Part shown: positions 2,644 through 44,755 of the stretch, one piece after another | How the letters are laid out: each line of letters begins with the position of its first letter | Position numbering within the stretch: the stretch's first letter is position 1 | DNA from: a virus | IMG/VR virus record: IMGVR_UViG_3300009610_000043 | Span: 1-44,755 of that record | Direction: 5' to 3' (one strand) | Length of the DNA: 44,755 nucleotides | Position numbers and translations under genes: made by a program | The notes under the pieces: model-generated | Database searches by the model: none | Told to the model about the DNA's origin: nothing | Seen by the model: only the letters and a program-made list of their open reading frames with translations

Positions 2644-2952
2644 ATGCAATTCACAACATTCGTTCGCAAGCCGTTCGTCGTTGATGCAGTAGAGGTCACA
2701 ACGGAGAACATTGCCGAAGTGGCTAAGTACGTTGGTGACTTGAGAGAGAAGGAGGACGGGACTCCTTATATTCTCGTGGATCGCCGCCTGGTTCCGAACG
2801 TGTTCCGGGTGTATCCAGGGTTCTTCATGACGAAGATGGGGGAGAACGTTCGCTGCTATTCGAGGAAGATCTTCAAGGAGCAGTTCATGGTGCAGACTGA
2901 TGAGATCAAGCCTTGGGTGGACTTCATGGCGAAGAGTGGGGATTCGCAATAA
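2644..2952 (+). CDS. conserved phage protein, unknown function
   Basis: The 102-residue protein opens with FVRKPFVVDAVEVTTENI, a pattern seen in many small phage proteins: a beta strand, then an alpha-helical segment with VAKYVGDL. It has no membrane segment and no visible catalytic motif. The stop lies directly before promoter element 1, so this gene closes the transcription unit running from the replication fusion. I recognise the general family from actinophage genomes but know no function for it. Upstream, 2602-2643 is a 42-bp gap with nothing notable. Confidence 0.82.
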   Translation: MQFTTFVRKPFVVDAVEVTTENIAEVAKYVGDLREKEDGTPYILVDRRLVPNVFRVYPGFFMTKMGENVRCYSRKIFKEQFMVQTDEIKPWVDFMAKSGDSQ

Positions 2953-2969
2953 AAACAACGATTATAATG
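2943..2969 (+). promoter_or_regulatory. promoter element copy 1 (TTCGCA-N14-TATAATG)
   Basis: TTCGCA lies at 2943-2948, then 14 bases, then TATAAT at 2963-2968 followed by G. The right part (AACGATTATAATG) is shared almost letter for letter with six other sites in the window. It is followed at once by a terminator-like hairpin at 2970-3000. Confidence 0.75.
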
Positions 2970-5131: not shown

Positions 5132-5158
5132 TTCGCAGGATTTACAACGCTTATAATG
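5132..5158 (+). promoter_or_regulatory. promoter element copy 2
   Basis: TTCGCA at 5132-5137, a 14-base spacer, then TATAAT at 5152-5157 and G. It matches the consensus GTTCGCA...ACAACGCTTATAATGGAA. It drives a short unit with the small membrane protein at 5187, closed by the terminator at 5386. Confidence 0.75.
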
Positions 5159-8238: not shown

Positions 8239-10893
8239 GTGTTCATTGACGAAGATGATTATCTAGCCCATTATGGAATTCTCCGTCGTTCTGGTCGATA
8301 TCCATGGGGTTCCGGTCAAAATGAAAATCAACGAAACAAGATCTTCCTTCAGACTGTTTCGGATTTGAGAAAGCAAGGCCTAACGGAAGTCGAAATTGCT
8401 AGAGGATTTGATTGCTCCACTACCGATCTTAGAGCAGCAAAGTCTGAAGCTAAAAATCAACAAAAGCAAGCTGATATTGCAATGGCTCAGCGGTTGAAGG
8501 AAAAAGGATATTCAACCAACGCCATTGCTAACAGAATGGGAATTCCAGAATCATCTGCTAGAAATCTCTTAAAGCCAGGCGAAGCAGATAAAAATGATGT
8601 TCTTATTTCAACAACCGCCATGCTTAAGGCTCAAGTTGATGAAAAAGGCTTTGTAGATGTTGGTAAGGGCGTAGAGAACTATATTGGTGTCACTTCTACA
8701 AGACTTGATACCGCGATATCTATGGTTCGTGGCCAAGGATATGAACTTCACTATGTTACGGTTAAGCAACTTGGTACAGGTCATGAAACTAAGATGAAGG
8801 TGTTAGGTCCTCCTGGATCTACTCAAAAAGATGTTTGGCAACATCCAGAAAAGATTCAACAGATTACTAATTATTCTGATGATGGTGGTCGATCTTATAC
8901 TAAGACCCAAACTCCTATTTCAATCAGCCCAAAGCGGGTTGGTATTGTTTACGCCGATCAAGGTGGTTCGAAAGCAGATGGAGTAGTTTATGTTCGGCCA
9001 GGAGTTGACGATATTGCTCTTGGCGGGTCAAAGTACGCCCAAGTTCGTATTCAGGTTGGAGATGGCCATTATATTAAGGGAATGGCTATGTACAAGGATG
9101 ATTTACCAGATGGTGTAGACCTTATGTTTAATACGTCTAAAAGAGATACTGGTAACAAACTCGATGCAATGAAGCCACTTACTGATGATCCAGATCTTCC
9201 GTTTGGTTCTATCGTTCGTCAAATTGTAGATAAGCCTGGATCTCCAAACGCCAAAGTAACTTCTGTTATGAATATTGTTAATGAAGAAGGAAACTGGGCT
9301 GATTGGTCTCGTACTTTGTCTTCTCAGATGTTGTCTAAGCAAAGCCCGCATCTCGCTAAGACACAGTTAGATATGACTTATGAACGTCGTCTAAATGATT
9401 ATGAAAATATCAGCAATCTTACAAACCCAACAGTTCGTAAGAAGTTGCTTATGGATTTTGCTGGTAGTACTGATTCGGCAGCCGTTCATCTAAAGGCTGC
9501 AGCAATGCCAGGTCAAGCAGTAAGAGTTATTCTTCCAGTATCTTCGATTCAACCAAATCAAGTTTATGCCCCCACTTTTAGAAATGGCGACACTGTTGTA
9601 TTGATTCGTCACCCACATGGTGGGACATTTGAGATTCCAAGATTAACGGTTAACAATAATCATGCTGAATCTAAGAAGCTTCTTGGGGATGCAAGAGATG
9701 CAATTGGTATTCATCACGAAACAGCTAAGAGATTGTCGGGTGCTGATTTCGATGGAGATACAGTTCTTGTAATTCCAGATTCCGCACGTAGGATTAAAGA
9801 TTCGCCTGCTCTAAAAGCGCTTAATGATTTCGATCCTAGAGCATCGTACCCAGCATATGAGGGTATGAAGCCTATGCGTAATACGCAAACAGAGATGGGG
9901 AAGATCTCTAATCTTATTACGGACATGACTATTCAAGGCGCCAGTCATGATGAAGTTGCCCGTGCTGTTAAGCATTCCATGGTTGTTATTGATGCGGAAA
10001 AACATAATCTTAATTATAAACTGTCTTATAATGATAACAACATTAGACAACTTAAAGAGAAGTATCAAAGACAACCCAGTGGTTCAACAGGTGCCGCCAC
10101 CCTTATCTCAAGGGCTAAGTCTGAGATACGGGTACCTGAAAGAAAAGAACGCAGCCAAGGTAAAGGTGGCCCTATTGATAAGGCTACTGGTGAACGCGTC
10201 TTTGAAGAAACAGGTAGGGTACATTGGAAGTCTGGTATGCCCATCACTACCACCACCACTAGGTTGGGTGAGGCTAAGGATGCGCATACTCTATCATCAG
10301 GTACCCCTATTGAACGGTACTATGCAGATCATTCTAATCAACTCAAGTCTTTAGCTAATACGGCTAGGCTTCAAGCAATTAATACCCCCCCTTCAAAGTA
10401 TCTGCCCTCTGCTAAGAAGGTGTATGCTAATGAAGTAGCCTCCCTCAATTCTAAATTGACCGTGGCTAAAAGTAATGCCCCTCTTGAACGACAGGCCCAG
10501 TTAATAGCCAACAGTATTGTTAAGACTAAGAAGAGTTACAATCCTAACATGGATAAGGATACGCATAAGAAGGTTGAATACCAGGCCCTTCAAGAAGCCC
10601 GTGCACGTACGGGTGCAGATAAACAACAGATCCGCCTCACTAATCAAGAATGGGACGCCATACAGGCGGGAGCTATCAGTGATTCTAAACTCTCCGAGAT
10701 CTTAACACATGCAGACATGGATGTAGTACGTAAGCTTGCAACACCTAAGACTGAGATACTAATGACAAGTAACATGACTAATAGAGCCAACGCTATGTTT
10801 GCATCTGGCTATACTAGATCAGAGGTAGCACAAGCACTTGGTGTATCAGTTAGTACATTGGATGTTGCAACAGTAGCAACAACAACTGAATGA
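8239..10893 (+). CDS. DFDGD-motif protein, putative single-chain RNA polymerase with HTH repeats
   Basis: The protein has 884 residues; GTG start behind AAGGAGGTGATTT. The N-terminus contains HYGILRRSGRYPWGSG (about 11-26), then two helix-turn-helix units (LRKQGLTEVEIARGFDCSTT and RLKEKGYSTNAIANRMGIPE, within about 43-113). The core holds VVLIRHPHGGTFEIPRLTV and then SGADFDGDTVLVIP with DFDGD at 503-507, the metal-binding signature of double-psi beta-barrel RNA polymerases (RNAP beta', YonO-like, RdRP-like). After it comes TEMGKISNLITDMTI and HSMVVIDAEKHNLNYK. A third helix-turn-helix (GYTRSEVAQALGVSVSTLD) ends the protein. The motif and size fit a phage DNA-dependent RNA polymerase; activity is inferred. 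The 3' quarter appears to use somewhat different codons. It lies immediately before the late-gene boundary. Confidence 0.82.
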   Translation: MFIDEDDYLAHYGILRRSGRYPWGSGQNENQRNKIFLQTVSDLRKQGLTEVEIARGFDCSTTDLRAAKSEAKNQQKQADIAMAQRLKEKGYSTNAIANRMGIPESSARNLLKPGEADKNDVLISTTAMLKAQVDEKGFVDVGKGVENYIGVTSTRLDTAISMVRGQGYELHYVTVKQLGTGHETKMKVLGPPGSTQKDVWQHPEKIQQITNYSDDGGRSYTKTQTPISISPKRVGIVYADQGGSKADGVVYVRPGVDDIALGGSKYAQVRIQVGDGHYIKGMAMYKDDLPDGVDLMFNTSKRDTGNKLDAMKPLTDDPDLPFGSIVRQIVDKPGSPNAKVTSVMNIVNEEGNWADWSRTLSSQMLSKQSPHLAKTQLDMTYERRLNDYENISNLTNPTVRKKLLMDFAGSTDSAAVHLKAAAMPGQAVRVILPVSSIQPNQVYAPTFRNGDTVVLIRHPHGGTFEIPRLTVNNNHAESKKLLGDARDAIGIHHETAKRLSGADFDGDTVLVIPDSARRIKDSPALKALNDFDPRASYPAYEGMKPMRNTQTEMGKISNLITDMTIQGASHDEVARAVKHSMVVIDAEKHNLNYKLSYNDNNIRQLKEKYQRQPSGSTGAATLISRAKSEIRVPERKERSQGKGGPIDKATGERVFEETGRVHWKSGMPITTTTTRLGEAKDAHTLSSGTPIERYYADHSNQLKSLANTARLQAINTPPSKYLPSAKKVYANEVASLNSKLTVAKSNAPLERQAQLIANSIVKTKKSYNPNMDKDTHKKVEYQALQEARARTGADKQQIRLTNQEWDAIQAGAISDSKLSEILTHADMDVVRKLATPKTEILMTSNMTNRANAMFASGYTRSEVAQALGVSVSTLDVATVATTTE

Positions 10894-12153: not shown

Positions 12154-12167
12154 ATTAAGGAGAATTC

Positions 12168-26703: not shown

Positions 26704-26727
26704 TCGAAATTGATGGGAGATCAGAGA

Positions 26728-27270: not shown

Positions 27271-27281
27271 TTGGAGGGTAA

Positions 27282-35222: not shown

Positions 35223-36335
35223 ATGGAACTCTTTAAATTTGTAACCGCTAATCCGTATATCACGATTTTCACTGAAGGCCGAATGATTATTGGCGCTACA
35301 AGTATTATGTGGGCAGAACGATATCGTGATGCTGGAGAATTTGAAATTGTAGCACCATTGAGTTCTGGTTTAAAAGATTTTCTTCCGATTGGGACATTCA
35401 TTTCGCATATCGATACTTATGAAATAATGGTTGTAGAGAATCAGGAAATCAAAGAAGAAAACGCTGAAGATCCTACAATTACAATCACTGGAAGATCTCT
35501 CGATAGTTATCTTGAAAATCGCATCGTTGGAATGAGTTTGGCCAGAGCATCTAATCTTATCCAAGAGTATCCTCTTGCTGCGATGTACAGCTGGAATCAA
35601 ATTGTCAACGTCATCAATGATCACATTCAGGGGTTGGCATATTCTGACGATAACATCGTTAATGTGGTTGCTGTAACTACCGTTACATATCCTCCTGGAA
35701 CAAATGAAGCTAGAACATTCAAGCATGTCGATCTTTACAAGACGGTTCTGGAACTTCTTTCTGTTGATGATCTAGGCATCAAGTCTGTTCGTATGAATAC
35801 GTTTGGCGCTCCTGATAGCAGTCCTATACAGACTCAATTGGTCGTTCATAGAGGTGTAGATCGGTCAAAGACTGTTATATTCTCTTGGAAGTCAGGAGAC
35901 ATTCAAGGCGCTGATTATTTGTGGAGCGACAAGAAGATGAAGAACTCCGCATTGGTTATGGGACGATATGTCAACACTGTTGTGGATACTCCAGGTATGA
36001 ACTGGGCTAATCGTCGTTCGATGCTTGTAACGGCTGATGATATTGATGGACACTTGGACACGGTTCCGACTGGCACAGCATTGACTGATATCGTAGCCAA
36101 AATGCAGGTGAGAGGTAGAGAAGCTCTCAAAAACCAAAATCGAGTAACTATTACAAGATCTGATCTAGCTAATATCTCAAAGTATCAGTATCGAAAGGAT
36201 TTTCAAGTCGGTGACTTGATCATGCTTGACGGTAACTTCGGTCAGATCGGTGTTATGCGAATTATCGAATACGTAGAGATTCAAGACGAAAATGGAGAGA
36301 CCGGTCACCCAACGTTGGCCGTAGTAGGAGAATAA
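35223..36335 (+). CDS. ReqiPepy6 Gp37-like baseplate hub protein
   Basis: ATG 35223 after GGGGGGTGTAAG; 370 residues. Segments ITIFTEGRMIIGATSIMWAERYRDAGEFEIVAPL, IMVVENQEIKEE, ITITGRSLDSYLENRIV and the C-terminal FQVGDLIMLDGNFG are typical of the Siphovirus ReqiPepy6 Gp37-like family, first named from a Rhodococcus phage. These proteins form the central hub of the tail tip. No lytic domain is visible in this copy. The stop overlaps the start of the next gene (TAATG), so that membrane protein is read with the late operon. Confidence 0.93.
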   Translation: MELFKFVTANPYITIFTEGRMIIGATSIMWAERYRDAGEFEIVAPLSSGLKDFLPIGTFISHIDTYEIMVVENQEIKEENAEDPTITITGRSLDSYLENRIVGMSLARASNLIQEYPLAAMYSWNQIVNVINDHIQGLAYSDDNIVNVVAVTTVTYPPGTNEARTFKHVDLYKTVLELLSVDDLGIKSVRMNTFGAPDSSPIQTQLVVHRGVDRSKTVIFSWKSGDIQGADYLWSDKKMKNSALVMGRYVNTVVDTPGMNWANRRSMLVTADDIDGHLDTVPTGTALTDIVAKMQVRGREALKNQNRVTITRSDLANISKYQYRKDFQVGDLIMLDGNFGQIGVMRIIEYVEIQDENGETGHPTLAVVGE

Positions 36336-36577
36336 TGGACGATTTTGTTTGGATATTGGCTATATGTATTCTTACGGTGATTTTAGTATGGCAGTTTCTC
36401 GTAGCTAGGCATAATCGAAAAAGTTACGGCCAAATCGTAATCACAGAAGCAATAGATGGAAAGAAGACGTTTTCCTTGGAGATAGATAAGAATCCTGACG
36501 AGATTGCGAGTATGGGTTTTATCACATTCAAGGTGACAAAAGAGACACCAGAGGATCTTGACGATCTCGCAAACTAA
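36335..36577 (+). CDS. membrane-anchored conserved phage protein
   Basis: The protein has 80 residues, with the start overlapping the hub gene stop (TAATG). An N-terminal helix (FVWILAICILTVILVWQFLV, about 4-23) anchors it; a soluble part follows, SYGQIVITEAIDGKKTFSLEIDKNPDEI, then FKVTKETPEDL. I recognise the soluble pattern (GQIVITE..DGKK.FSLE.DKNP) from many phages of Gram-positive hosts, where the gene also follows the tail genes. Function unknown. It opens the membrane-protein island and is the only member tied directly to the late operon. Confidence 0.85.
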   Translation: MDDFVWILAICILTVILVWQFLVARHNRKSYGQIVITEAIDGKKTFSLEIDKNPDEIASMGFITFKVTKETPEDLDDLAN

Positions 36578-36592
36578 ACATCGCTTATAATG
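36566..36592 (+). promoter_or_regulatory. promoter element copy 4
   Basis: CTCGCA at 36566-36571 (one mismatch to TTCGCA), 14 bases, TATAAT at 36586-36591 and G. It lies over the end of the 36335 gene and serves the gene at 36612. Confidence 0.7.
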
Positions 36593-36611
36593 AGACTACG
36601 AAAGGATTAGA

Positions 36612-36908
36612 ATGAGGCGATTTCTTGTGAGAAAGCCAACAGTTCTGGATGAGCCCATTGAAAAGGTTCTGACTGGGATGAACATGTATAGCCCGGAGGA
36701 TCCAGAGTATTTGACGTTGATGAATCATCTTGAACGGCTGAATCGAATGAAGGCGGAAAATCGCCAGACTCGAGTTAGCCCGGATACGATGGCAATCGTC
36801 GTCGGCAACATTCTGGGGATTCTGGTTATCGTGGCATACGAGCAGAAGCACGTCATGGTATCGAAGGGATTGGGGTTTGTAATCAAGGCTAAGGAGCCTA
36901 GAAGCTGA
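36612..36908 (+). CDS. conserved phage membrane-associated protein
   Basis: The 98-residue protein has an ATG behind GAAAGGATTAG. A soluble first half (PIEKVLTGMNMYSPEDPEYLTLMNHLERLNRMKAE) is followed by RVSPDTMAIVVGNILGILVIVAYEQKHVMVSKGLGFVI, which contains one membrane helix (about 62-78). The pair 'EKVL-MYSPDS-EY-HLERL' and 'VSPDT-AIV-GN-LGILIIVAYE' is a pattern I know from many phages; the role is unknown. It is expressed from promoter copy 4 and ended by the terminator at 36939. Confidence 0.87.
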   Translation: MRRFLVRKPTVLDEPIEKVLTGMNMYSPEDPEYLTLMNHLERLNRMKAENRQTRVSPDTMAIVVGNILGILVIVAYEQKHVMVSKGLGFVIKAKEPRS

Positions 36909-37151
36909 CCCAGATGTAGCGAAGAGCGTAGAGGCTGTGTAGAAATACATGGTTTCTACGTTTTTCGCTATATTTACATCGATTGTAATTTTTTCTAGCC
37001 TCTGTGTGGCGTTCTAAGCCACGAAAAAGGTTCGGTTGGTATGCCGGGTGCGGAAAATACGATTGCACGTCTCAGAACGGACTACAGAGGCCTCTCAGCG
37101 ATTTTGGCTGTTTTTGGTGTAAAAATTCCCGGGGGGAAGTTTCTGGGTGGG
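36909..37151 (+). ncRNA. structured non-coding region with competing helices
   Basis: No credible gene lies here. It begins with the terminator at 36939, enclosed by GATGTAGCGAA (36913-36923) against TTCGCTA (36964-36970) and a following TTTACATC. AGAGGCT (36930-36936) can pair with AGCCTCT (36997-37003), which can also pair with AGAGGC inside the palindrome 37086-37095. A GTGGC/GCCAC hairpin (37006-37022) follows. Several folds exclude each other, which suggests a small RNA or an attenuator. A G-rich stretch (CCCGGGGGG) ends it before promoter copy 5. Confidence 0.45.
36939..36965 (+). terminator. intrinsic terminator
   Basis: GTAGAAA (36939-36945) pairs with TTTCTAC (36953-36959) around a 7-base loop, then G and five T. 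It ends the transcript from promoter copy 4. Confidence 0.8.
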
Positions 37152-37178
37152 TTCGCAATATAAACAACGCTTATAATG
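37152..37178 (+). promoter_or_regulatory. promoter element copy 5
   Basis: TTCGCA 37152-37157, 14-base spacer with ATATAAACAACGCT, TATAAT 37172-37177, G. It is nearly identical to copy 2 and sits 26 bases before the start of the 69-residue gene. Confidence 0.78.
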
Positions 37179-37202
37179 GAACTATATTATAAGGAGTGAA
37201 GA

Positions 37203-37412
37203 ATGTTAAATCGCACACTTCGCGTGGATCTAGTGAAAAAGAATGAGTCGCATCAGGTTGATAAAAACCAAGATGATACCGACTTCGCCGACAAGGCCAC
37301 AATCGTGGGAATTGTTGTTGAAGGAGCTATCAAAAGGGTTGGCATCGCCGTGTGTGCGTACGTCGTCTTGGACACCATCCGCCGAGTCGCGGTTGCGTCA
37401 GCATCAAACTGA
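37203..37412 (+). CDS. small membrane protein
   Basis: The 69-residue protein has an ATG behind AAGGAGTGAAG. A polar N-terminus (NRTLRVDLVKKNESHQVDKNQDD) leads to ADKATIVGIVVEGAIKRVGIAVCAYVVLDTIRRVAVASA, with one membrane helix in the second half and positive charges around it. It is followed by a hairpin at 37420. It is another member of the island's set of small one-helix proteins; no named family. Confidence 0.78.
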   Translation: MLNRTLRVDLVKKNESHQVDKNQDDTDFADKATIVGIVVEGAIKRVGIAVCAYVVLDTIRRVAVASASN

Positions 37413-37419
37413 TATAACC

Positions 37420-37449
37420 AAAGGAGAGCTAGCAATGGCTTTCCTTTTT
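37420..37449 (+). terminator. hairpin with T-run, overlapping a ribosome site
   Basis: AAAGGAGAGC (37420-37429) pairs with GCTTTCCTTT (37438-37447) over 10 bp with one G-T and an 8-base loop, followed by TT. The 5' arm is a perfect ribosome site placed before ATG 37435, which opens only an 8-codon frame. It could be a terminator or a leader-peptide switch. Confidence 0.55.
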
Positions 37450-37461
37450 CTAAGGATCTAA
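37435..37461 (+). CDS. possible 8-codon leader peptide
   Basis: ATG 37435 lies 5 bases after AAAGGAGAGC and encodes only MAFLFLRI before TAA at 37459-37461. The next gene starts two bases later and has no other strong ribosome site except AAGGA inside this frame. Translation of the leader would melt the hairpin at 37420 and could supply ribosomes to the gene at 37463. Speculative. Confidence 0.35.
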   Translation: MAFLFLRI

Positions 37462-37462
37462 T

Positions 37463-37597
37463 ATGAGTGAAGGCGCGAGACTGCTTATTTTTACGATACT
37501 CGCTGGATTTATAATCGTTGATGTTGTGATTGAAATTGTCAGAATCCTAGTTCGCAAAAAAAACAAGGATTATAATGAGAGGAAGACGAGGCACTAG
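37463..37597 (+). CDS. 44-residue single-pass membrane protein
   Basis: ATG 37463 follows TAAGGATCTAAT. MSEGARLLIFTILAGFIIVDVVIEIVRILV is one hydrophobic helix with a few charges, followed by a basic tail (RKKNKDYNERKTRH). Promoter copy 6 lies inside its coding sequence. It is too short for family recognition and is supported by position and hydrophobic pattern. Confidence 0.6.
   Translation: MSEGARLLIFTILAGFIIVDVVIEIVRILVRKKNKDYNERKTRH
37551..37577 (+). promoter_or_regulatory. promoter element copy 6
   Basis: TTCGCA 37551-37556, 14 bases (AAAAAAACAAGGAT), TATAAT 37571-37576 and G. It overlaps the end of the 37463 gene and serves 37685 onward. Confidence 0.72.
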
Positions 37598-37684
37598 CTT
37601 TGTTGGTGAAAGACCCATATATCTAGTGTGGAAGCAAAATCCATGCACCGTCTACTTCTCATTTTACTTTTCACTGGAGGACCA

Positions 37685-37945
37685 ATGGCCGGGAAAGATC
37701 CCGTAAGTAATATGCTGTCAAACACTGACGACCCCATGGTTTGGGCCGAGGAGTTCTGTCGGTTGTTTCACGGTAAGATTGTTACAATGATTGAAAGCAG
37801 GGAAGAAGTAGATCCAGGTCTCATGGTCGGTTGGTTCGCCAATGCTATGATGGTAGGCGTTAATCATTATGAACGAAGAAAGCTTCAGGCTAAAGATGAA
37901 TTATCAAATATTTTTGAAGGAGACGCCAGTGTCGACCCGTCGTAA
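37685..37945 (+). CDS. conserved small phage protein
   Basis: I use ATG 37685, 5 bases after GGAGG (ACTGGAGGACCAATG), rather than GTG 37628; 86 residues. It contains DDPMVWAEEFCRLFHGKIV, then EVDPGLMVGWFANAMMVGVNHYE and a charged end. The WAEEFCR and GLM-GWFANA pattern recurs in phages of Gram-positive bacteria in the same context; the function is unknown. It is probably soluble with an amphipathic helix. The 3' end overlaps the next start. Confidence 0.83.
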   Translation: MAGKDPVSNMLSNTDDPMVWAEEFCRLFHGKIVTMIESREEVDPGLMVGWFANAMMVGVNHYERRKLQAKDELSNIFEGDASVDPS

Positions 37946-38045
37946 GTACGGGTTTTGGAAATTTCTCGGAGATGTGTTTCTGACATGTCTTACGGGAGGA
38001 TTCTGGTTGATTTGGATTTTCGTTAGGGAGATGCGAAATCGATGA
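37929..38045 (+). CDS. 38-residue conserved membrane protein
   Basis: The GTG start lies 6 bases after GAAGGAGA, inside the end of the previous gene, and the stop overlaps the next start (ATGA). The sequence begins STRRKYGFWKFLGDVFLTC and continues LTGGFWLIWIFVREMRNR: a basic start, two short hydrophobic stretches with GG, and a basic end. The pattern YGFW...GD.FLT..TGG.WLIW.F.REMR is one I know from other phages. Coupled at both ends, it is probably made in fixed ratio with the DUF6353-like protein that follows. Confidence 0.75.
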   Translation: MSTRRKYGFWKFLGDVFLTCLTGGFWLIWIFVREMRNR

Positions 38046-38797
38046 GTAAATTGTCTCGATTCAGTGGAACCGTTCTAAGGAACATAAAAGCTAATTCGCC
38101 CGTTATCTTGTCTGTTGCCGCTGGAGTTGGGACAATCGCTACCGCTTTGTTGGTAGGAAAAGCATCCTTTGAGGCAGCTAATGCTATTAGAGATCATGAA
38201 GAGCAGAATGCTCCAGCTATTAATCCGAAAGAACGGCTAAAGGATAGAACTAAACTTGTCTGGAAATTCTATATTCCACCGGCAATTTCGACCGTTTCTA
38301 CTATCATGTGTGTTGCTGGGGCTAATCGAGTGGGAGCTCAAAAAACCTTTGCCGCTAACGCTGCACTCTCTGTCATCGAACGAGCATATTCTGATTATAG
38401 AGAAAAAACGGTTGAAGAGCTTGGTCCACGTAAAGATCAATCCATTCGAGATAAGGTTGTTGCTGACCAAATAGCTAAAACGCCATCTCCATCTCAAGAT
38501 ATTCTGGTGACCGGTCCAGGAAACATTTTGTGTTGTGAGATGTTCACTATGCGATATTTCGCAAGTGATATGGAGAAGTTGAGAAAGGCTCAGAACGAAC
38601 TCAATTCTAAATTATTGAAACATGATTATGCTACATTCGATGATTTCTATTATATTATCGGATTGCAGCCAACCACAACTTCAGGAAATCTTGGATGGAC
38701 GTCAGATAAATTGATGGAGCTTGAATTCTCCACAGCATTGTCAGATGACGGCCGTCCATGCATCACGTTCACGTACAATTACACCAAAACACTATAA
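38042..38797 (+). CDS. DUF6353-like membrane protein, paralogue 1
   Basis: The protein has 251 residues; ATGA overlap start. The N-terminus has NSPVILSVAAGVGTIATALLVGKASFEAANAI (TM1, about 18-42), then a charged loop, KFYIPPAISTVSTIMCVAGANRVGAQKTFAANAALSVIERAYSDYRE (TM2 about 76-96 and a long helix), a soluble middle and a C-terminal domain (FDDFYYIIGLQPTTTSGNLGWTSD). The layout matches the phage family I know as DUF6353. Paralogue 2 at 40495 has the same order of parts. Function unknown; membrane location is visible in the sequence. Confidence 0.85.
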   Translation: MSKLSRFSGTVLRNIKANSPVILSVAAGVGTIATALLVGKASFEAANAIRDHEEQNAPAINPKERLKDRTKLVWKFYIPPAISTVSTIMCVAGANRVGAQKTFAANAALSVIERAYSDYREKTVEELGPRKDQSIRDKVVADQIAKTPSPSQDILVTGPGNILCCEMFTMRYFASDMEKLRKAQNELNSKLLKHDYATFDDFYYIIGLQPTTTSGNLGWTSDKLMELEFSTALSDDGRPCITFTYNYTKTL

Positions 38798-38809
38798 AGG
38801 ATATCTAAA

Positions 38810-38896
38810 ATGGACAACAAGTACAAGTACAGCATCATTCTTCTCATCATCCTCATTCTCACTGTCGGTGGGGTCGTTTGGAACAACAAGGACTGA
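38810..38896 (+). CDS. 28-residue single-helix protein
   Basis: ATG 38810 follows AAAGGATATCTAAA. MDNKYKYSIILLIILILTVGGVVWNNKD is one near-perfect hydrophobic helix flanked by polar ends. Good ribosome site and tight spacing to the DUF6353-like gene. No family recognised. Confidence 0.62.
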   Translation: MDNKYKYSIILLIILILTVGGVVWNNKD

Positions 38897-38901
38897 TCGC
38901 A

Positions 38902-39036
38902 ATGGACAAGTTTGATAGGACTGATATTGTAATCGCTAGTTTAATCGTAGGGTATGCTATCGGATCGCTTGTTACTCAGCGTCGAACACTAACTTTGTTG
39001 AAATTGGCTAAAATGGCTTCGGATATCGAAAAGTAG
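38902..39036 (+). CDS. 44-residue membrane protein
   Basis: The ATG follows the previous stop by 5 bases. MDKFDRTDIVIASLIVGYAIGSLVTQRRT contains a short glycine-zipper-like hydrophobic segment (IVIASLIVGYAIGSLV), then a basic helical tail with LLKLAKMASDIEK. No separate strong ribosome site; coupling to the 28-residue gene is likely. Family unknown. Confidence 0.62.
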   Translation: MDKFDRTDIVIASLIVGYAIGSLVTQRRTLTLLKLAKMASDIEK

Positions 39037-39039
39037 AGG

Positions 39040-39066
39040 TTCGCAGAAAAAACATGCGTTATAATG
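39040..39066 (+). promoter_or_regulatory. promoter element copy 7
   Basis: TTCGCA 39040-39045, 14 bases (GAAAAAACATGCGT), TATAAT 39060-39065 and G. It drives the 54-residue gene, which is closed by a strong terminator at 39266. Confidence 0.75.
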
Positions 39067-39091
39067 AGAGAATTACTAAAGGAGAAATATC

Positions 39092-39256
39092 ATGATCGAA
39101 GCTATGACAAATAGCGACAGTTCGTTGCCGATGAAGCATCAGATTTCCAAGCTCGTTCTCGGCACACTTGCCGGGTTCGCTGCTGGAAAGCTGACTGAAA
39201 AGGCTTACGACGCCGCACTTGCTTGCTATAAGAACAGGAAGATGATCGTAAAGTGA
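39092..39256 (+). CDS. 54-residue glycine-zipper-like membrane protein
   Basis: ATG 39092 behind AAAGGAGAAATATC. After a polar start (MIEAMTNSDSSLPMKHQ) comes ISKLVLGTLAGFAAGKLTEKAYDAALACY, with spaced Gly/Ala typical of helix packing, then a basic end. Placed alone between promoter copy 7 and a strong terminator, it resembles the promoter/gene/terminator cassette at 5132-5418. Confidence 0.75.
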   Translation: MIEAMTNSDSSLPMKHQISKLVLGTLAGFAAGKLTEKAYDAALACYKNRKMIVK

Positions 39257-39265
39257 TCAATCACA

Positions 39266-39295
39266 GGGAGAGCCTACATGGGTTCTCCCTTTTTT
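39266..39295 (+). terminator. strong intrinsic terminator
   Basis: GGGAGAGCC pairs with GGGTTCTCCC (6 bp GGGAGA/TCTCCC plus inner pairs) around a short loop, then six T. It ends the unit from promoter copy 7. Confidence 0.88.
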
Positions 39296-39313
39296 CAATT
39301 AGAAAGGTAAAGA

Positions 39314-39739
39314 ATGCTCAAGCGTGATATCACCTACGAGAACTTCGATGGTGAGCAAGTGACGGAAACGTTTTATTTCAATTTGACCAGAAGCGAATTG
39401 GTTGAACTCGAGGTTGGATATCAGGGAGGGCTTCAGGAGGCCATTCAAAGAATCATCAAGACGGATGATAAGCAAAGTTTGATCGCTGAATTCAAGAAGC
39501 TTGTGCTTTTGGCGTATGGTGTCAGGTCAGAAGATGGAAAGCGATTTATCAAAACTGACCAGCTTCGAGAGGAATTCTCTCAGACGGCTGCATACGACTC
39601 GTTGTTCATGGAGCTCGCCACGAGTGACGATGCTGCAGCCAATTTCATTAAGGGCGTAGTTCCGAAGGATTTCCAGAGGGAGATGGCGAAGGTCGAAACC
39701 GTTCCACTTCCGGCCATGCCGTCGGTGCCAAAGGAATAA
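39314..39739 (+). CDS. tail assembly chaperone-like conserved phage protein
   Basis: The 141-residue protein has an ATG behind AGAAAGGTAAAGA. It reads KRDITYENFDGEQVTETFYFNLTRSELVELEVGYQGGLQEAIQRIIK, then FKKLVLLAYGVRSEDGKRFIK and YDSLFMELATSDDAAANFIKGVVPKDF. This pattern ('Y-DF-G---TETFYFNLT--E' and 'AYG-RS-DGKRFIK') is common in phages of Gram-positive bacteria and I associate it with tail-chaperone-like proteins. Its position 3 kb after the hub, outside the tail block, is odd. Confident as a family, uncertain as to role. Confidence 0.78.
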   Translation: MLKRDITYENFDGEQVTETFYFNLTRSELVELEVGYQGGLQEAIQRIIKTDDKQSLIAEFKKLVLLAYGVRSEDGKRFIKTDQLREEFSQTAAYDSLFMELATSDDAAANFIKGVVPKDFQREMAKVETVPLPAMPSVPKE

Positions 39740-39740
39740 G

Positions 39741-40364
39741 ATGGATTATCAAGGTAACCCGAATAAAGCTAAAGAAGAAAAGCCAGCCAAGCAAATTGAA
39801 AAGGTCGTTACCGGAGAAGTTATCCAAAAGCCAAAGTCTATTGGACGTAAGTTCAAAGATATATTTCTTGGCGGTGATTTGAGGGCCTCAGCTAGATCTG
39901 TTACTGGGGATGTCATTCTTCCAGCTATTCGAGATTTGATTGTTGATGCCGTATCCAGTGGAGCTAAGCGACTCGTGTACGGTGAGTCGATGTATAGACG
40001 TCGCCCTACGGAGTATCGGCCTCGAGTTCAATACAGTAATCCGATTAATCCATCATATCGCGGGATGAGAGATCCGCGTGAGCGTCCAAATCTTCCAGAT
40101 CAACCAAGCTTAGTTAGACAACAGCGACGCGAAGCTAATGAAATCATCTTGGCTCAGCGAGAAGATGCAGAACTTGTCGTAGAGCGATTGATTGATATTA
40201 TCGATAAGTACGATGTGGCATCATTGGCTGATCTTTATGATCTTCTTGGGTGGCCCACAACTCCTATTGACAACAAATGGGGCTGGACATTCTTGAAGAA
40301 TGTAGAGATCCGTCAAGTTCGAGATGGATATTTGATCGATCTACCGCCATTGGAGGCTGTGTAA
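39741..40364 (+). CDS. conserved phage protein, unknown function (207 aa)
   Basis: The ATG follows the previous stop by one base. Parts: basic N-terminus (NPNKAKEEKPAKQIEKVVTGEVIQKPKSIGRKFKDIFLGGD), a helical region (TGDVILPAIRDLIVDAVSSGAKRLVYGES), an arginine/proline-rich linker (YRRRPTEYRPRVQYSN) and a C-terminal domain (ERLIDIIDKYDVASLADLYDLLGWPTTPIDNKWGW) close to the C-terminal domain of the DUF6353-like proteins ('DFY-IG-----GNLGW'). I know this protein from many phages where it travels with the DUF6353-like gene. Not membrane-spanning; perhaps a cytoplasmic partner of the island. Confidence 0.85.
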   Translation: MDYQGNPNKAKEEKPAKQIEKVVTGEVIQKPKSIGRKFKDIFLGGDLRASARSVTGDVILPAIRDLIVDAVSSGAKRLVYGESMYRRRPTEYRPRVQYSNPINPSYRGMRDPRERPNLPDQPSLVRQQRREANEIILAQREDAELVVERLIDIIDKYDVASLADLYDLLGWPTTPIDNKWGWTFLKNVEIRQVRDGYLIDLPPLEAV

Positions 40365-40498
40365 TGAGCAATCATGAACGTGACCAATTGAAGAGAGGCA
40401 ATCCTTCAAAGAAATGGGCAGAAGAAGTTGATAAAATGCGCCCTGAGGAAGTAGTCAACATTTACAACCGTCTGCGGGCAGAGGGAAAGTCAAAGTGA
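40364..40498 (+). CDS. 44-residue conserved phage protein
   Basis: ATG 40364 lies in a TAATG overlap with the previous stop. MSNHERDQLKRGNPSKKWAEEVDKM then RPEEVVNIYNRLRAEGKSK: short, basic and helical. This small pattern (KRG-PSKKWA..VDKM...-V--IYNRLR-EGK) recurs in phages near the same neighbours. It ends in a GTGA overlap with the paralogue 2 gene. Confidence 0.75.
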   Translation: MSNHERDQLKRGNPSKKWAEEVDKMRPEEVVNIYNRLRAEGKSK

Positions 40499-41379
40499 AG
40501 AACAAACTTATACGGATTATTCCGAATTCTGTGGTCGGCAAAGTTAGTCGGTCCATTCTGAAGGCCAAGAAGAATTCCCCTCATATCTTCTTTGCAGCGG
40601 GTATAGCAGGAACAATCACAAGTACGGTTCTGGCTTGTCGAGCAACCTTGAAGCTTTCTTCAACTCTCGATGAGATCAAGCATGACGTTGAGGTGCTTGA
40701 GACAGATCCGGTTCGAAACGAAATGCCAACTGAGGAATGGCGTCTTGATACGGTTTATATTTATGGTAAGGCTAGTCTCAGGCTCGTCAGGCTTTATGGG
40801 CCTGCGGCTGTGGTTGGCGTAGTTTCCATTGGAATGCTTACTGGTTCACACGTTCAATTGGTTCATCGTAACACCGCACTGATGGCAGCGTATGCAGCCG
40901 TTCAGAAGGCTTATGACGAGTATCGTGAACGAGTACGATATCAGTTCGGCGAAGAAGCAGAACTCGAGTTGTATCACGCATCAAGGACCGAGTTGGTTAA
41001 AGATGCTAGTGGCGAAGTCATTGAGGCAAGGGTAGTCGATCCAAACAGGTATTCTCCTTACGCAAAGTTCTTTGATGAGTATTCTCGTCATTGGAACAAG
41101 GATCCTGAATTGAATCGACTGTTCATTCAGTGTCAGCAGAACTATGCTAATGATCTTCTAAATGCTCGTGGTCATATTTTCCTCAACGAAGTATACGATC
41201 AGCTTGGCATTGATAGATCAAAGGCTGGTGCGGTTGTTGGTTGGGTGAAAGGTGGAGAAGGTGATAACTACATTGATTTCGGAATGTTCCAAGCATACAA
41301 TTCACAGTTCGTGAATGGGTGGGAGCGTAGCATTCTTCTTGATTTCAATGTCGACGGAGTTATCTACGACAAGATTTAG
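40495..41379 (+). CDS. DUF6353-like membrane protein, paralogue 2
   Basis: The protein has 294 residues with a GTG start overlapping the previous stop. KNSPHIFFAAGIAGTITSTVLACRATLKL (TM1), a loop with EVLETDPVRNEMPTEE, YGPAAVVGVVSIGMLTGSHVQLVHRNTALMAAYAAVQKAYDEYRERV (TM2 plus helix) and a longer C-terminal domain (NARGHIFLNEVYDQLGIDRS, then GAVVGWVKGG). The order of parts equals paralogue 1, with a longer inter-domain insert (about 165-210). The pair could form a hetero-oligomer. Confidence 0.86.
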   Translation: MKNKLIRIIPNSVVGKVSRSILKAKKNSPHIFFAAGIAGTITSTVLACRATLKLSSTLDEIKHDVEVLETDPVRNEMPTEEWRLDTVYIYGKASLRLVRLYGPAAVVGVVSIGMLTGSHVQLVHRNTALMAAYAAVQKAYDEYRERVRYQFGEEAELELYHASRTELVKDASGEVIEARVVDPNRYSPYAKFFDEYSRHWNKDPELNRLFIQCQQNYANDLLNARGHIFLNEVYDQLGIDRSKAGAVVGWVKGGEGDNYIDFGMFQAYNSQFVNGWERSILLDFNVDGVIYDKI

Positions 41380-41387
41380 GAGAAATT

Positions 41388-42149
41388 ATGAAACTTGAAC
41401 TAAAAGGATGGGTAATTCCGGCAAGTGTTGGCGTTGTCTCATTCGCAGCTGGTTTTGGCGTTGGTTATTTTATTTCAAAACATAAAAAGGTTGACGCCAA
41501 AATCGAAGAGGTAAAAGAAGAACTTCGTTCTGAGAATGTTCAACTCGAATTCAAATTTGAAGAAGTTGAACAACGCTTTGCTAGTGCGATGCAACAAGCT
41601 GATCATGTAGTCAAAAAATTAAAAGATGATGGTCAAGCATTTCTAAACAAGTTTAATGAGCCGGTTATCCAAGCAGCTAAGGATAACCATCCAAGTAATG
41701 ATAAAAGAGGTACCAACTTGGTTTCAATTAACAATATGGATGAGGAGGTTTTGACAACCAACGTCTTCCAAAGTGATGACGATGACGATTGGGACTACGA
41801 AGATGAACTTAGTCAGCGTAGCGAAGCAGCTCCTTACATTATTCACAGAGATGAATACGACCAAAACGAAGAAGATTACAGCACGTCGACCTTGATGTAT
41901 TACGAGGGCGATAATATTCTTTGTGATGAACACGATGTCCCTGTTTACAATCCCGACAAGGTAGTTGGCAAACTAATCTTCGGACATGGATCACGTGATC
42001 CTAGCATCTGTTATATTCGAAACGATCAACTTCTAGCTCTGTATGAAGTCATTATTGACCACGGATATTTTCAAACAGAAGTCCTTGGTCAACAAATTGA
42101 GCATGGTATCAGGAGACATCGTTCCCTTCCAAAATTTAGGATGGAATAG
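41388..42149 (+). CDS. membrane-anchored conserved phage protein (253 aa)
   Basis: The protein has 253 residues; ATG behind AGGAGAAATT. TM helix near 8-28 (VIPASVGVVSFAAGFGVGYFI), then charged coiled coil (KVDAKIEEVKEELRSENVQLEFKFEEVEQRF), a very acidic linker (SDDDDDWDYEDE) and a C-terminal domain PYIIHRDEYDQNE...STLMYYEGDNILCDEHDVPV then FGHGSRDPSICYIRNDQLLALYEVI. I know the C-terminal pattern ('PYVI--EEF-E--Y---SLTYYADGVL-D') from phages of Gram-positives. Function unknown. It looks like a membrane tether carrying a soluble domain on a long coiled arm. Confidence 0.87.
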   Translation: MKLELKGWVIPASVGVVSFAAGFGVGYFISKHKKVDAKIEEVKEELRSENVQLEFKFEEVEQRFASAMQQADHVVKKLKDDGQAFLNKFNEPVIQAAKDNHPSNDKRGTNLVSINNMDEEVLTTNVFQSDDDDDWDYEDELSQRSEAAPYIIHRDEYDQNEEDYSTSTLMYYEGDNILCDEHDVPVYNPDKVVGKLIFGHGSRDPSICYIRNDQLLALYEVIIDHGYFQTEVLGQQIEHGIRRHRSLPKFRME

Positions 42150-42151
42150 AT

Positions 42152-42685
42152 ATGGAGGGGCCTCTTGAAGATCTATATTTTCGGTGGCTCTGTGCAAAAG
42201 TTACGTATGTTACGAGTCCAACTCCATCATTAACACATTGGAACCTCCTTAAGATTCTTCATAATACTGAATTCGTATGGCTGTTATCTGGAGATGATAA
42301 TCGATCCGAAGACGGAAAAGAACTTCGAATAGATTTCTTGTTCGAGGGTAATATTCCAGATAATGTTGAATGGAGAGCTTTGCCTTGTTCTATTTTAGAG
42401 ATGCTCATTGCGTTTTCTCGAAGAGCTGAATTCCAAACAGATACTCCAGCTCGAGAATGGTTCTGGGAATTCATTGATAATCTAGGATTGAAAGAACTTA
42501 ATGATGGAGCTGAGATTGATCTTGATGAAGTCGAGATGATTTTGGATCGATTTATTTGGAGAACATATAATCCAAGAGGTGAGGGTGGTATATTACCAAT
42601 CAGCAATGTGAACGGTGATCAAAGAGGAATCGAAATTTGGTATCAGTTCTGTGACTACTTAGTAGATCATCAGCGTATGCCATGA
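42152..42685 (+). CDS. conserved phage protein (RAEFQTD family)
   Basis: The 177-residue protein has an ATG two bases after the previous stop. Segments LEDLYFRWLCAKVTYVTSPTPSLTHWNLLKILHNTEFVWLLSGDDNRSEDGKELR, LEMLIAFSRRAEFQTDTPAREWFWEFIDNLGL and EIWYQFCDYLVDHQRMP form a pattern I have often seen in phages of Gram-positive bacteria next to replication genes. Mostly alpha-helical and soluble, no catalytic motif visible. Placed between the membrane island and the replication fusion, it may belong to either. Function unknown. Confidence 0.87.
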   Translation: MEGPLEDLYFRWLCAKVTYVTSPTPSLTHWNLLKILHNTEFVWLLSGDDNRSEDGKELRIDFLFEGNIPDNVEWRALPCSILEMLIAFSRRAEFQTDTPAREWFWEFIDNLGLKELNDGAEIDLDEVEMILDRFIWRTYNPRGEGGILPISNVNGDQRGIEIWYQFCDYLVDHQRMP

Positions 42686-42696
42686 AAGGAGGGTTT

Positions 42697-44755
42697 GTGG
42701 ACTTTTATAAGATCAGGATAAAGGAGACTAAGGGAGTTCCACAAGCTTACCCGGATTGGATTGTTGATGGTGTTGATGATTTAATGGTTAGAGGAGGTTC
42801 ATTCTACGCTGTATGGGATGAATCTCTTGGTATGTGGTCCACAGACGAATTCAATGTTCGACGGCTTGTAGATGCTGACATTCACGATTTCGTTGAGAGC
42901 GCCAAACAAAAAGGTACTGTCTTCGAACCTCTTTTCACAAGAAACTTTAGCACAGGAACTTGGGAGCGATTTAATAAGTATATTCGGAATCTTCCAGACA
43001 GCGGTAATTACTATCCGCTTGACGAAACAATAACTTTTGCAAACACAGAGGTTAAGAAAAAAGATTATGTTAGTAAGCGACTGCCCTATTCCCTCGAGGC
43101 AGGAAAGACAGAAGCTTGGGATGAACTCCTGGGCGTGTTATATTCTGCTGATGAGCGAGATAAAATTGAGTGGGCCATCGGAGCAATCGTCTCAGGTGAT
43201 TCGAGATGGATCCAGAAATTCTTAGTATTCTATGGTCCTCCAGGAACCGGCAAGTCCACAGTAATCAGCATTATCGAGAAGCTCTTCGAAGGATACGTAG
43301 CTACGTTTGAAGCTAAGGCCTTGACGAGTAGCAATGGAACATTTGCTATGGAGGCGTTTGAGAGTAATCCGCTGGTAGCAATCCAACACGATGGCGATTT
43401 GTCTAGAGTCGAAGATAACACAAAGTTGAATTCAATCGTTGGCCACGATTCGATGCAACTCAACGTGAAGTATCGATCGGCTTTCACGATTCGTCCTAAT
43501 GCGTTTGTTATTGTTGGAACGAATAAGCCAGTAAAGATTTCAGACGCTAAGGCTGGTAATACACGACGCTTGATTGATGTGCATCCAACCGGAGCTAAGA
43601 TTGAACCAGGGCGATATCATATCCTTACGGAGAACATTAATTACGAGCTAGGCGCCATAGCTTATAAATGTCTCCAGCGGTATCGCGACATGGGTAAATT
43701 CTATTATGAGAATTATATCCCGACGAAGATGATGATGTTAACGGATACCTTCTACAACTTTGTGGAAGCTCACTTCGATATCTTCAAGTCTCAGGACGGA
43801 ATTCAACTCAAGCATGCCTGGGATCTGTACAAGCAGTATTGTGAGGATGCCAACATTGTCAAGCGTCTCCAGTATCATGAAGTTCGTGATGAGCTAACGA
43901 GTTATTTCGAAGACTTTAAGGATCGGCATTTCATGGGGGAGAAGGAATACAGAAGCGTTTACATTGGTTTTAAAGGTCTACCAGAGCAAGGACCTATACC
44001 ATTTGTACCAGATACTTCATACGTAATTGAACTGGATGATTACGATCCTGTTTATCATGGCTCAGCTTTTGATAACGCATATCCTGATCTACCAGCACAA
44101 GAAGCAAAGCCAAGTGGTTTCCCAGGTAAGAAATGGGAACGAGTCACAACAACCTTGCGAGATATAGATACAACAAAACTTCATTACGTGCAGGTCCCGG
44201 AACAGCATGTCGTCATTGATTTCGATTTGGTGGACGAAGATGGCGAAAAGGATCTTGAGCAGAACATAGAACGAGCGTCGAAGTTGCCGCCCACTTACAC
44301 AGAATTGAGTAAGAGTGGGAAAGGTCTTCATTTGCATTATATTTATAGTGGCGACGTTACTGAGTTGGATTCTGCTCTTGATGTTGGTATTGAGATTAAG
44401 ACCCTCTTGGGAGACAGTGCTCTCCGTAGGAAGCTTACAAAATGCAACAACCTTGATATTGCTGTTCTCAGTAGTGGCCTTCCAAGGAAAGAGAAAAAGG
44501 TGATTGAGACTAAGAGTATACAAAGTGAGCGGGGACTTCGTGAACTAATTGATCGCAATCTTCGTAAGGAGATTCATCCTGGAACAAAGCCCTCAATCGA
44601 CTTTATTCACCACATCCTTGAAGACGCTTATAACGACGGACTTAGTTACGACGTGTCTGATCTTAGATCTGTTATTCTTACATTTGCTTTAAGAAGTACG
44701 CATCAAGCAACGGCGTGCGTCAAGATGGTACAGACAATGAAGTTTGTCGGTAAGA
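42697..44755 (+). CDS. SF3 helicase and PrimPol part of helicase-PrimPol-PolB fusion (continues at base 1)
   Basis: GTG 42697 lies behind AAAGGAGGGTTT. Joined across the circle it gives about 1261 residues with no stop. Residues to about 160 are an N-terminal domain. The SF3 helicase has Walker A GPPGTGKST near 180, a Walker B-like HDGD near 231, motif C GTNKP near 274 and RRLIDVHP. After a linker, an archaeo-eukaryotic primase core follows: IDFDLVD near 507 (two metal aspartates), SKSGKGLHLHY near 538 and IEIK near 565. A helical stretch leads into the polymerase from about 690. The primase is placed after the helicase, the reverse of the usual order in primase-helicases. One chain would prime, unwind and copy DNA. 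The last 123 bases repeat the window start. Confidence 0.92.
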   Translation, partial: MDFYKIRIKETKGVPQAYPDWIVDGVDDLMVRGGSFYAVWDESLGMWSTDEFNVRRLVDADIHDFVESAKQKGTVFEPLFTRNFSTGTWERFNKYIRNLPDSGNYYPLDETITFANTEVKKKDYVSKRLPYSLEAGKTEAWDELLGVLYSADERDKIEWAIGAIVSGDSRWIQKFLVFYGPPGTGKSTVISIIEKLFEGYVATFEAKALTSSNGTFAMEAFESNPLVAIQHDGDLSRVEDNTKLNSIVGHDSMQLNVKYRSAFTIRPNAFVIVGTNKPVKISDAKAGNTRRLIDVHPTGAKIEPGRYHILTENINYELGAIAYKCLQRYRDMGKFYYENYIPTKMMMLTDTFYNFVEAHFDIFKSQDGIQLKHAWDLYKQYCEDANIVKRLQYHEVRDELTSYFEDFKDRHFMGEKEYRSVYIGFKGLPEQGPIPFVPDTSYVIELDDYDPVYHGSAFDNAYPDLPAQEAKPSGFPGKKWERVTTTLRDIDTTKLHYVQVPEQHVVIDFDLVDEDGEKDLEQNIERASKLPPTYTELSKSGKGLHLHYIYSGDVTELDSALDVGIEIKTLLGDSALRRKLTKCNNLDIAVLSSGLPRKEKKVIETKSIQSERGLRELIDRNLRKEIHPGTKPSIDFIHHILEDAYNDGLSYDVSDLRSVILTFALRSTHQATACVKMVQTMKFVGK
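44633..44755. repeat. terminal direct repeat, right copy
   Basis: Identical to bases 1-123. See the left copy; the repeat shows that the genome unit is 44632 bp and closes on itself inside the replication gene. Confidence 0.97.

What the first reader, a model, noticed from the sequence alone, without database searches (positions are those of the whole stretch)
36335..42149. Membrane-protein island with two DUF6353-like paralogues
Between the tail hub and the replication fusion there are about fourteen genes, roughly nine with a membrane helix: two DUF6353-like proteins, a 253-residue tethered protein with a coiled arm and acidic linker, and many one-helix peptides of 28-98 residues. The same set recurs in other Gram-positive phages as I know them, suggesting a unit. 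Possible jobs: a membrane scaffold for replication or head assembly, superinfection exclusion, or host membrane remodelling. Related C-terminal patterns (DFYYIIGL..GNLGW; DLYDLLGW..DNKWGW; EVYDQLGI..GAVVGW) in the 251-, 207- and 294-residue proteins suggest they assemble together.
Basis: partly seen in the sequence, partly recalled or inferred. Interest (0 to 1): 0.82.

Follow-up and report, generated by a model that had tools for sequence, protein, structure and literature searches.

The report
Conserved phage membrane-protein block beside polymerase
A large family of viruses of Gram-positive bacteria carries, just in front of its DNA-copying enzyme, the same ordered block of membrane-anchored proteins of unknown function plus many tiny membrane proteins, and most copies of one shared promoter-like sequence lie here, so it is a real and testable unit, probably a membrane anchor for virus replication.

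Summary
Window 36335-42149 carries 15 SD-led genes, ten with a predicted membrane helix. The 251- and 294-aa proteins are DUF6353 (E 1e-66, 1e-68), and the 207-aa protein shares their C-terminal motif. The block DUF6353A - 207-aa - DUF6353B - 253-aa - 177-aa - primase/PolB keeps its order in 33 of 35 viral and 29 of 30 bacterial-genome loci, from Actinobacteria to Clostridia. DUF6353A and B form separate, old clades.

The island is composite. The 141-aa gene is a displaced tail assembly chaperone (one relative has it at the canonical site), and the first gene shares the C-terminal region of relatives' Dp-1-type holins. The small membrane genes form a variable regulon: a lineage-specific promoter-like element, TCGCA-N6-ACA-N5-TATAATGAGA, precedes many of them. 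85 of 113 element copies in 15 genomes lie between tail hub and primase/PolB (20.5 expected).

Function is not shown. Best guess (0.38): a membrane scaffold tethering phage DNA or replisome, working like phi29 p1/p16.7. Superinfection exclusion or envelope remodelling remains plausible for the small peptides. No solved structure or defence family matches convincingly. The lineage also encodes a YonO/RdRP-like RNA polymerase, a candidate but untested reader of the element.

The parts
36335..36577 (+). 80-aa one-helix protein; its C-terminal region (GQIVITE..GKKTFSLEI..DPDEI..ITFKV) is shared with relatives' Dp-1-type holins; probably a holin-derived protein rather than part of the core
   Evidence: family alignment by eye; relatives hit PF16938 at 1e-11 to 1e-27; window copy does not
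36567..36592 (+). promoter-like element copy (TCGCAAACTAAACATCGCTTATAATG)
36612..36908 (+). 98-aa one-helix protein, phrog_5818, widely conserved in lineage
37153..37178 (+). promoter-like element copy
37203..37412 (+). 69-aa one-helix protein, recurs in close relatives
37463..37597 (+). 44-aa one-helix peptide, window only
37552..37577 (+). promoter-like element copy
37685..37945 (+). 86-aa soluble protein, window only
37929..38045 (+). 38-aa one-helix peptide (GTG start with SD), motif YGFxxFLxDVFMTxxTxGFWLIWIFVREMRxR, recurs in about 30 relatives, usually directly before DUF6353A
38042..38797 (+). DUF6353 paralogue A, 251 aa, two predicted TM helices
38810..38896 (+). 28-aa one-helix peptide
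38902..39036 (+). 44-aa one-helix peptide
39041..39066 (+). promoter-like element copy
39092..39256 (+). 54-aa amphipathic peptide family, recurs in about 20 relatives
39265..39290 (+). intrinsic-terminator-like hairpin followed by T run, between small peptides and the chaperone
   Evidence: consensus match only
39314..39739 (+). tail assembly chaperone (Phage_TAC_17, PF23803), displaced from its usual site between major tail and tape measure genes
39741..40364 (+). 207-aa core protein, phrog_4079, C-terminal motif shared with DUF6353
40364..40498 (+). 44-aa conserved soluble protein (YPSKxWxxKVDKMSDxQVxAIYxRL)
40495..41379 (+). DUF6353 paralogue B, 294 aa: TM hairpin plus cytoplasmic C-terminal domain (model pLDDT 88)
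41388..42149 (+). 253-aa core protein, phrog_4695: N-terminal TM helix, coiled coil, disordered acidic linker, conserved C-terminal domain
42152..42685 (+). 177-aa soluble core protein, phrog_4678
42682..44755 (+). primase/helicase-PolB fusion, 5' part; continues at window 1-1850 (permuted record)
2944..2969 (+). promoter-like element copy outside the island
5133..5158 (+). promoter-like element copy outside the island, upstream of a 63-aa hydrophobic peptide
8239..10893 (+). YonO/RdRP-like (DFDGD) RNA polymerase with HTH ends; candidate reader of the element

Best explanation
SHOWN: the region is a conserved gene block (DUF6353A, 207-aa, 44-aa, DUF6353B, 253-aa, 177-aa proteins) kept in fixed order directly upstream of the primase-helicase/PolB gene across one phage supergroup of Actinobacteria and Firmicutes. 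It is interleaved with a lineage-variable set of small, mostly one-helix peptides, many headed by a copy of one lineage-specific promoter-like element. PREDICTED BY MODEL: DUF6353 proteins are two-helix membrane hairpins with N and C termini in the cytoplasm; the 253-aa protein is a membrane-tethered coiled coil with an acidic linker and a globular head. INFERRED: DUF6353A, DUF6353B and the 207-aa protein, which share a C-terminal motif, form a heteromeric membrane complex. With the 253-aa tether and 177-aa protein it anchors phage DNA or the primase/polymerase to the cytoplasmic membrane, working like phi29 p1/p16.7. INFERRED: the small peptides are an early or middle regulon that adjusts the host membrane around that site.
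For: Fixed order with primase/PolB next in 33/35 viral and 29/30 bacterial-genome loci (maps). Same records carry all parts. Two old DUF6353 clades mean both copies are retained as distinct proteins. Shared C-terminal motif of DUF6353 and 207-aa protein. Topology: two TM segments, net positive N terminus and post-TM2 region, less positive or negative loop; AlphaFold model pLDDT 88, pTM 0.54. 253-aa model: helix 9-32, coiled coil 35-88, disorder 109-129, C-terminal domain. Promoter-like element: 85 of 113 copies in the hub-to-primase interval against 20.5 expected; almost only on the coding strand; small genes after it are more often TM proteins, 14/20 against 37/99, p = 0.007. phi29 precedent: p1 and p16.7 are proposed to anchor replication to the membrane (PMC4974454).
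Against: No member has a known function and nothing matches a solved structure. No DNA-binding or polymerase-binding signature was found in the core proteins. Adjacency to the primase/PolB could be inherited synteny only. L169 keeps the block although its primase/PolB is reduced to a 71-aa stub, possibly a mosaic junction, and Lactococcus phage P162 has the polymerase with a much reduced block. A tail gene sits inside the island, so position alone is a weak guide to function.
Confidence: 0.38

Rival explanations
1. Superinfection exclusion or host-envelope remodelling: the small one-helix peptides, with or without DUF6353, act on the host membrane to block a second injection or alter host physiology; the promoter-like element gives them early, coordinated expression.
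For: Many short single-helix peptides, lineage-variable, many of them promoter-led. The element also heads a 63-aa hydrophobic peptide in the early region.
Against: No match to Pfam exclusion families and only one weak PADLOC hit, of the coiled coil of the 253-aa protein. The core block is invariant in order across the supergroup, unlike typical accessory exclusion genes.
Confidence: 0.22
2. Membrane-associated virion assembly or packaging: the block organises tail or head morphogenesis at the membrane, which is why a tail assembly chaperone lies inside it.
For: A Phage_TAC_17 gene lies upstream of DUF6353B in 30 of 35 viral loci; the island follows the tail genes.
Against: No TAC_17 was detected in the upstream flank in any of 30 bacterial-genome loci that have the block; in L169 the chaperone is in its canonical tail position, so the link is positional and not universal.
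Confidence: 0.14
3. Genome-entry channel or virion-associated membrane proteins: DUF6353 proteins are carried in the virion or form the DNA entry site.
For: Two-TM hairpins with large cytoplasmic domain. The lineage's RNA polymerase is described as similar to a structural protein of phage 1706 (record note).
Against: No record annotation or proteomics available here places DUF6353 in virions; they lie away from the head and tail genes.
Confidence: 0.08
4. Synteny by descent only: unrelated genes that happen to sit together in one old phage lineage, with no joint function.
For: Nearly all occurrences fall in one supergroup that also shares RNA polymerase, tape measure and primase/PolB.
Against: Order is kept at 30-40% identity across Actinobacteria and Clostridia hosts, while the genes around it vary; shared C-terminal motif.
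Confidence: 0.18

Closest known systems
DUF6353 (PF19880) / phrog_2152
   Same: Both paralogues are clear members (E 1e-66, 1e-68; phrog_2152 6.9e-63, 2.1e-74)
   Different: The family has no function; not described as an A/B pair with a fixed neighbourhood in any paper found (no paper in the library names it)
Pepyhexavirus (Rhodococcus ReqiPoco6), Rimavirus, Scapunavirus, Nevevirus (Lactococcus P162) and related Arthrobacter and Gordonia phages
   Same: Same gene order (reduced in P162), same polymerases, same promoter-like element or a variant
   Different: The window's proteins are below 60% identical to all of them; its lysis amidase lies before the terminase genes instead of after the tail hub
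phi29 p1 and p16.7 membrane anchors of replication
   Same: Membrane proteins proposed to anchor the replication machinery; the 253-aa protein has a TM helix, coiled coil and globular C-terminal domain (the p16.7 domain plan is from my own knowledge) and neighbours the replication gene
   Different: No homology was tested or claimed; different replication mode (protein-primed in phi29); DNA binding untested
T4 middle promoters (MotA box plus -10)
   Same: A conserved motif near -30 with an excellent -10 element and no -35 hexamer at normal spacing
   Different: Different sequence; additional ACA block in the spacer and GAGA after the -10; no MotA or AsiA homologue was looked for
YonO, RNA polymerase of SPbeta
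   Same: The 884-aa protein has the DFDGD motif and is phrog_4291 'RNA-dependent RNA polymerase', the fold class to which YonO belongs
   Different: No direct alignment to YonO was made; YonO's promoter sequence is unknown (PMC5467207)

Membership tests
DUF6353 (PF19880) | Whole-protein score above the curated cut-off (25 bits) over most of the 253-position model | tested here: met
   251 aa: 224 bits, model 2-248; 294 aa: 229 bits, model 1-252
Phage_TAC_17 tail assembly chaperone (PF23803) | Score above curated cut-off (27 bits) | tested here: met
   141 aa: 156 bits, E 9.5e-46
Phage_TAC_17 tail assembly chaperone (PF23803) | Gene lies between major tail and tape measure genes (usual for tail chaperones, not part of the Pfam definition) | tested here: not met
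   Window copy lies 5 kb after the tape measure gene; the L169 homologue lies between major tail (phrog_2645) and tape measure (phrog_4372) genes, which supports the identity and shows displacement in the window
Dp-1 holin (PF16938), for the 80-aa protein | Two-TM holin domain above cut-off | tested here: not met
   Relatives of the family meet it; the window copy has one TM and no hit, sharing only the C-terminal region
ZapG-like (PF06295), for the 253-aa protein | Score above curated cut-off (33.5 bits) | tested here: not met
   20.3 bits, E 5.9e-4; explained by TM plus coiled coil
Superinfection-immunity-type peptides, for the 38-aa peptide | Pfam match of any member of the family | tested here: not met
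   30 members scanned at E up to 10, no such family
phi29 p16.7-type replication anchor, for the 253-aa protein | DNA binding by the C-terminal domain and interaction with the replication machinery | not testable with these tools
   No solved structure matched the model; only the domain plan agrees
YonO/RdRP-like RNA polymerase, for 8239-10893 | Double-psi-barrel catalytic DxDGD motif and family membership | tested here: met
   phrog_4291 E 0, 1256 bits over the whole protein; motif SGADFDGDTVLVIPD in the sequence
T4 middle-type promoter (sigma appropriation) | Host sigma factor plus a phage activator required | not testable with these tools
   Only sequence architecture compared

The most novel reading that the evidence does not exclude
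The lineage-wide element TCGCA-N6-ACA-N5-TATAATGAGA is the promoter of the phage's own YonO/RdRP-like RNA polymerase, which may be carried in the virion, so that the membrane island is an immediately expressed regulon that builds a membrane site for phage transcription and replication, independent of host taxonomy.
Probability: 0.17. Interest if true: 0.82.

Novelty: new variant of a known kind. Interest (0 to 1): 0.55.

Why it matters
If the block tethers replication to the membrane, it would be a widespread multi-protein anchor in phages of Gram-positive bacteria from soil, mouth and gut, found in about 240 phage records in which nearly every core gene is listed as hypothetical or just as a membrane protein. 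The promoter-like element gives an immediate handle: it defines a regulon, it is conserved with variants across hosts from Lactococcus to Rhodococcus, and it may be read by a YonO-like RNA polymerase, a class whose promoter was left open in the original YonO paper (PMC5467207).

Tried and rejected
Megablast of the region against phages: no match, all relatives are distant. Literature search for DUF6353: no paper; searches around 1706, ReqiPoco6, Arthrobacter and Gordonia phages gave nothing on this block in titles and abstracts; those papers were not read through. Simple sigma-70 scan: no excess of promoters (36 found, 35.4 expected), so the element was found by context, not by that scan. Two wrongly spaced versions of the element pattern gave zero hits and were corrected. 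Foldseek and VIA-align for DUF6353B gave only long-helix proteins without a clear relative (best E 0.47, Z 8.6); only its own family in BFVD. The 253-aa model gave no PDB match (best E 0.26, best Z 3.2). Sequence search against PDB for the chaperone and the 207-aa family: nothing meaningful. A frameshift fusion of the 141- and 207-aa genes was considered: the 207-aa frame is open upstream of its ATG, but the ATG has a good SD and no slippery heptamer is evident by eye at 39641-39760, so it was dropped. Superinfection-immunity identity of the 38-aa peptide, suspected from its TGGxWLI motif, was tested and not met.
Full report
CHECK. The window is a 44755-base IMG/VR virus record. It is a complete permuted genome: the two ends share a 123-bp direct repeat and the primase/PolB gene runs off the right end (from 42682) and finishes at 1850. 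In 36335-42149 I count 15 genes with an SD, ten with a hydrophobic segment by a simple hydropathy scan. Two starts differ from the longest ORFs: the '58-aa' peptide more likely begins at GTG 37929 (38 aa), and the 52-aa ORF at ATG 38902 (44 aa).

IDENTITY OF PARTS. The 251- and 294-aa proteins are DUF6353. In a tree of 91 DUF6353 proteins the B copies form a supported clade (99/88) and most A copies another (87/81), with a few long-branched copies unplaced; the duplication predates the spread over hosts. The 207-aa protein (phrog_4079) shares about 50 C-terminal residues with DUF6353 (hhalign E 2.3e-5 to 4.5e-4; the other island pairs 1.5e-3 or worse). The 141-aa protein is Phage_TAC_17. In most lineage members it sits in the island, but in L169, from a Lachnospiraceae assembly, it lies between a major tail protein (phrog_2645) and a tape measure protein (phrog_4372), the canonical place for a tail assembly chaperone. 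The 80-aa protein shares its C-terminal region with proteins that in relatives carry a Dp-1 holin domain.

CONSERVATION. tblastn against 50,697 phage records returns nearly the same 237-253 records for DUF6353A, DUF6353B, 207-aa, 177-aa and primase/PolB, from Arthrobacter, Gordonia, Streptomyces, Rhodococcus, Curtobacterium, Microbacterium, Lactococcus, Faecalibacterium, Bifidobacterium and human samples. TAC_17 gives 208 and the 253-aa protein, fast evolving, 154. Viral contigs and bacterial genome contigs, mostly Clostridia, give the same map. Among loci with at least 6 kb upstream and 5.5 kb downstream of DUF6353B, the complete order DUF6353 - 207-aa - DUF6353B - 253-aa - 177-aa - primase/PolB is present in 33/35 and 29/30. 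These loci were found by DUF6353B, so they do not test for loci that lack it. TAC_17 was found upstream in 30/35 viral but 0/30 bacterial-genome loci, so it is not core. In L169 the block remains while the primase/PolB is a 71-aa stub.

STRUCTURE. AlphaFold2 of DUF6353B on 57 sequences: pLDDT 88, pTM 0.54; two long helices (11-69, 79-151) and a mixed C-terminal domain. Hydropathy and charge place two TM segments (30-48, 97-115) with N and C termini inside. No related solved structure was found. The 253-aa model: helix 9-32, coiled coil 35-88, disorder 109-129, C-terminal domain about 137-235 (pLDDT 81); no PDB match.

A PROMOTER-LIKE ELEMENT. TATAATG occurs in similar context before several island genes. 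In the relatives the context is highly conserved: TCGCA, six bases, ACA, five bases, TATAATG. Downstream A, G, A are seen in 89, 84 and 84% of about 127 sites from loci that were not chosen by the pattern; one search includes pattern-chosen loci and is biased for GAG. Window: 6 copies at up to 3 mismatches, 0.04 expected. Of twenty records, 19 have it, in each record on one strand only, none for the reversed control pattern. In 15 records with mapped genes 85 of 113 copies fall between hub and primase/PolB, 20.5 expected; the binomial p of 1e-39 treats related genomes as independent and is only indicative. Exceptions: G006 has 9 of 12 outside and G011 3 of 3 outside. A start codon with SD follows at a median of 23 bases. 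Genes after it have median length 69 aa, 70 of 110 with a TM segment; among annotated small genes of five phages 14/20 with and 37/99 without the element are TM (p = 0.007). Lactococcus P162 has TTACA-N5-TATAATG (11 on the coding strand, 0 on the other) without TCGC; Clostridia loci have TCGC-N7-ACA-N5-TATAAT (14 against 0). Conservation across hosts points to a phage-encoded factor; this is inference. The architecture resembles T4 middle promoters, where a MotA box 12 +/- 1 bp upstream of the -10 replaces the -35 element (PMC2988021).

RNA POLYMERASE. The 884-aa protein at 8239-10893 is phrog_4291 'RNA-dependent RNA polymerase', found in 250 records of the same set, with DFDGD. The ReqiPoco6 record calls its homologue similar to a structural protein of Lactococcus phage 1706. 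Whether it reads the element is unknown. YonO transcribes late genes in SPbeta (PMC5467207), whereas the element is nearly absent from the structural genes here, which argues against a simple YonO analogy.

MECHANISM. Shown: conserved block, element, family identities. Model-based: membrane topology. Inferred: heteromeric complex, tethering of replication, early regulon. The replication-tether reading rests on constant adjacency to primase/PolB, on membrane topology and on the phi29 precedent (PMC4974454). I put it at 0.38, ahead of exclusion or remodelling (0.22), pure synteny (0.18), assembly (0.14) and entry (0.08).

VERDICT. New variant of a known kind; interest 0.55.

Noticed in passing
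window 8239-10893: YonO/RdRP-like RNA polymerase (DFDGD, HTH at both ends), in 250 phage records of this lineage; a homologue in phage 1706 is described as structural, so it may be virion-borne.
   Followed up: partly
window 3366-3432: Pistol ribozyme above Rfam gathering score (46.4 bits, E 1.9e-5), overlapping the 3' end of the 3024-3389 gene.
   Followed up: no
window 1-44755: Record ends share a 123-bp direct repeat; primase/PolB continues across the ends, so this is a complete permuted genome although classed as linear.
   Followed up: yes
window 25972-28103: Two paralogous major tail proteins (both phrog_2645) flank a phrog_4338 gene.
   Followed up: no
window 11587-14023: Two proteins with collagen-like repeats, 188 and 497 aa.
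   Followed up: no
window 17922-18785: Amidase_2 endolysin lies before the terminase genes, unlike relatives where hydrolase and holin follow the tail hub.
   Followed up: no
L169 12799-20885: Block followed by a 71-aa primase/PolB stub, RNA polymerase, then major tail, chaperone and tape measure genes: an alternative genome order.
   Followed up: partly
L006 21099-22188: In Streptomyces phage DrGrey three genes, one annotated as terminase small subunit, are inserted between the 44-aa gene and DUF6353B.
   Followed up: no
window 36909-37202: About 290 bases without a clear gene, with a long imperfect hairpin at 36920-36967, between the 98- and 69-aa genes.
   Followed up: no
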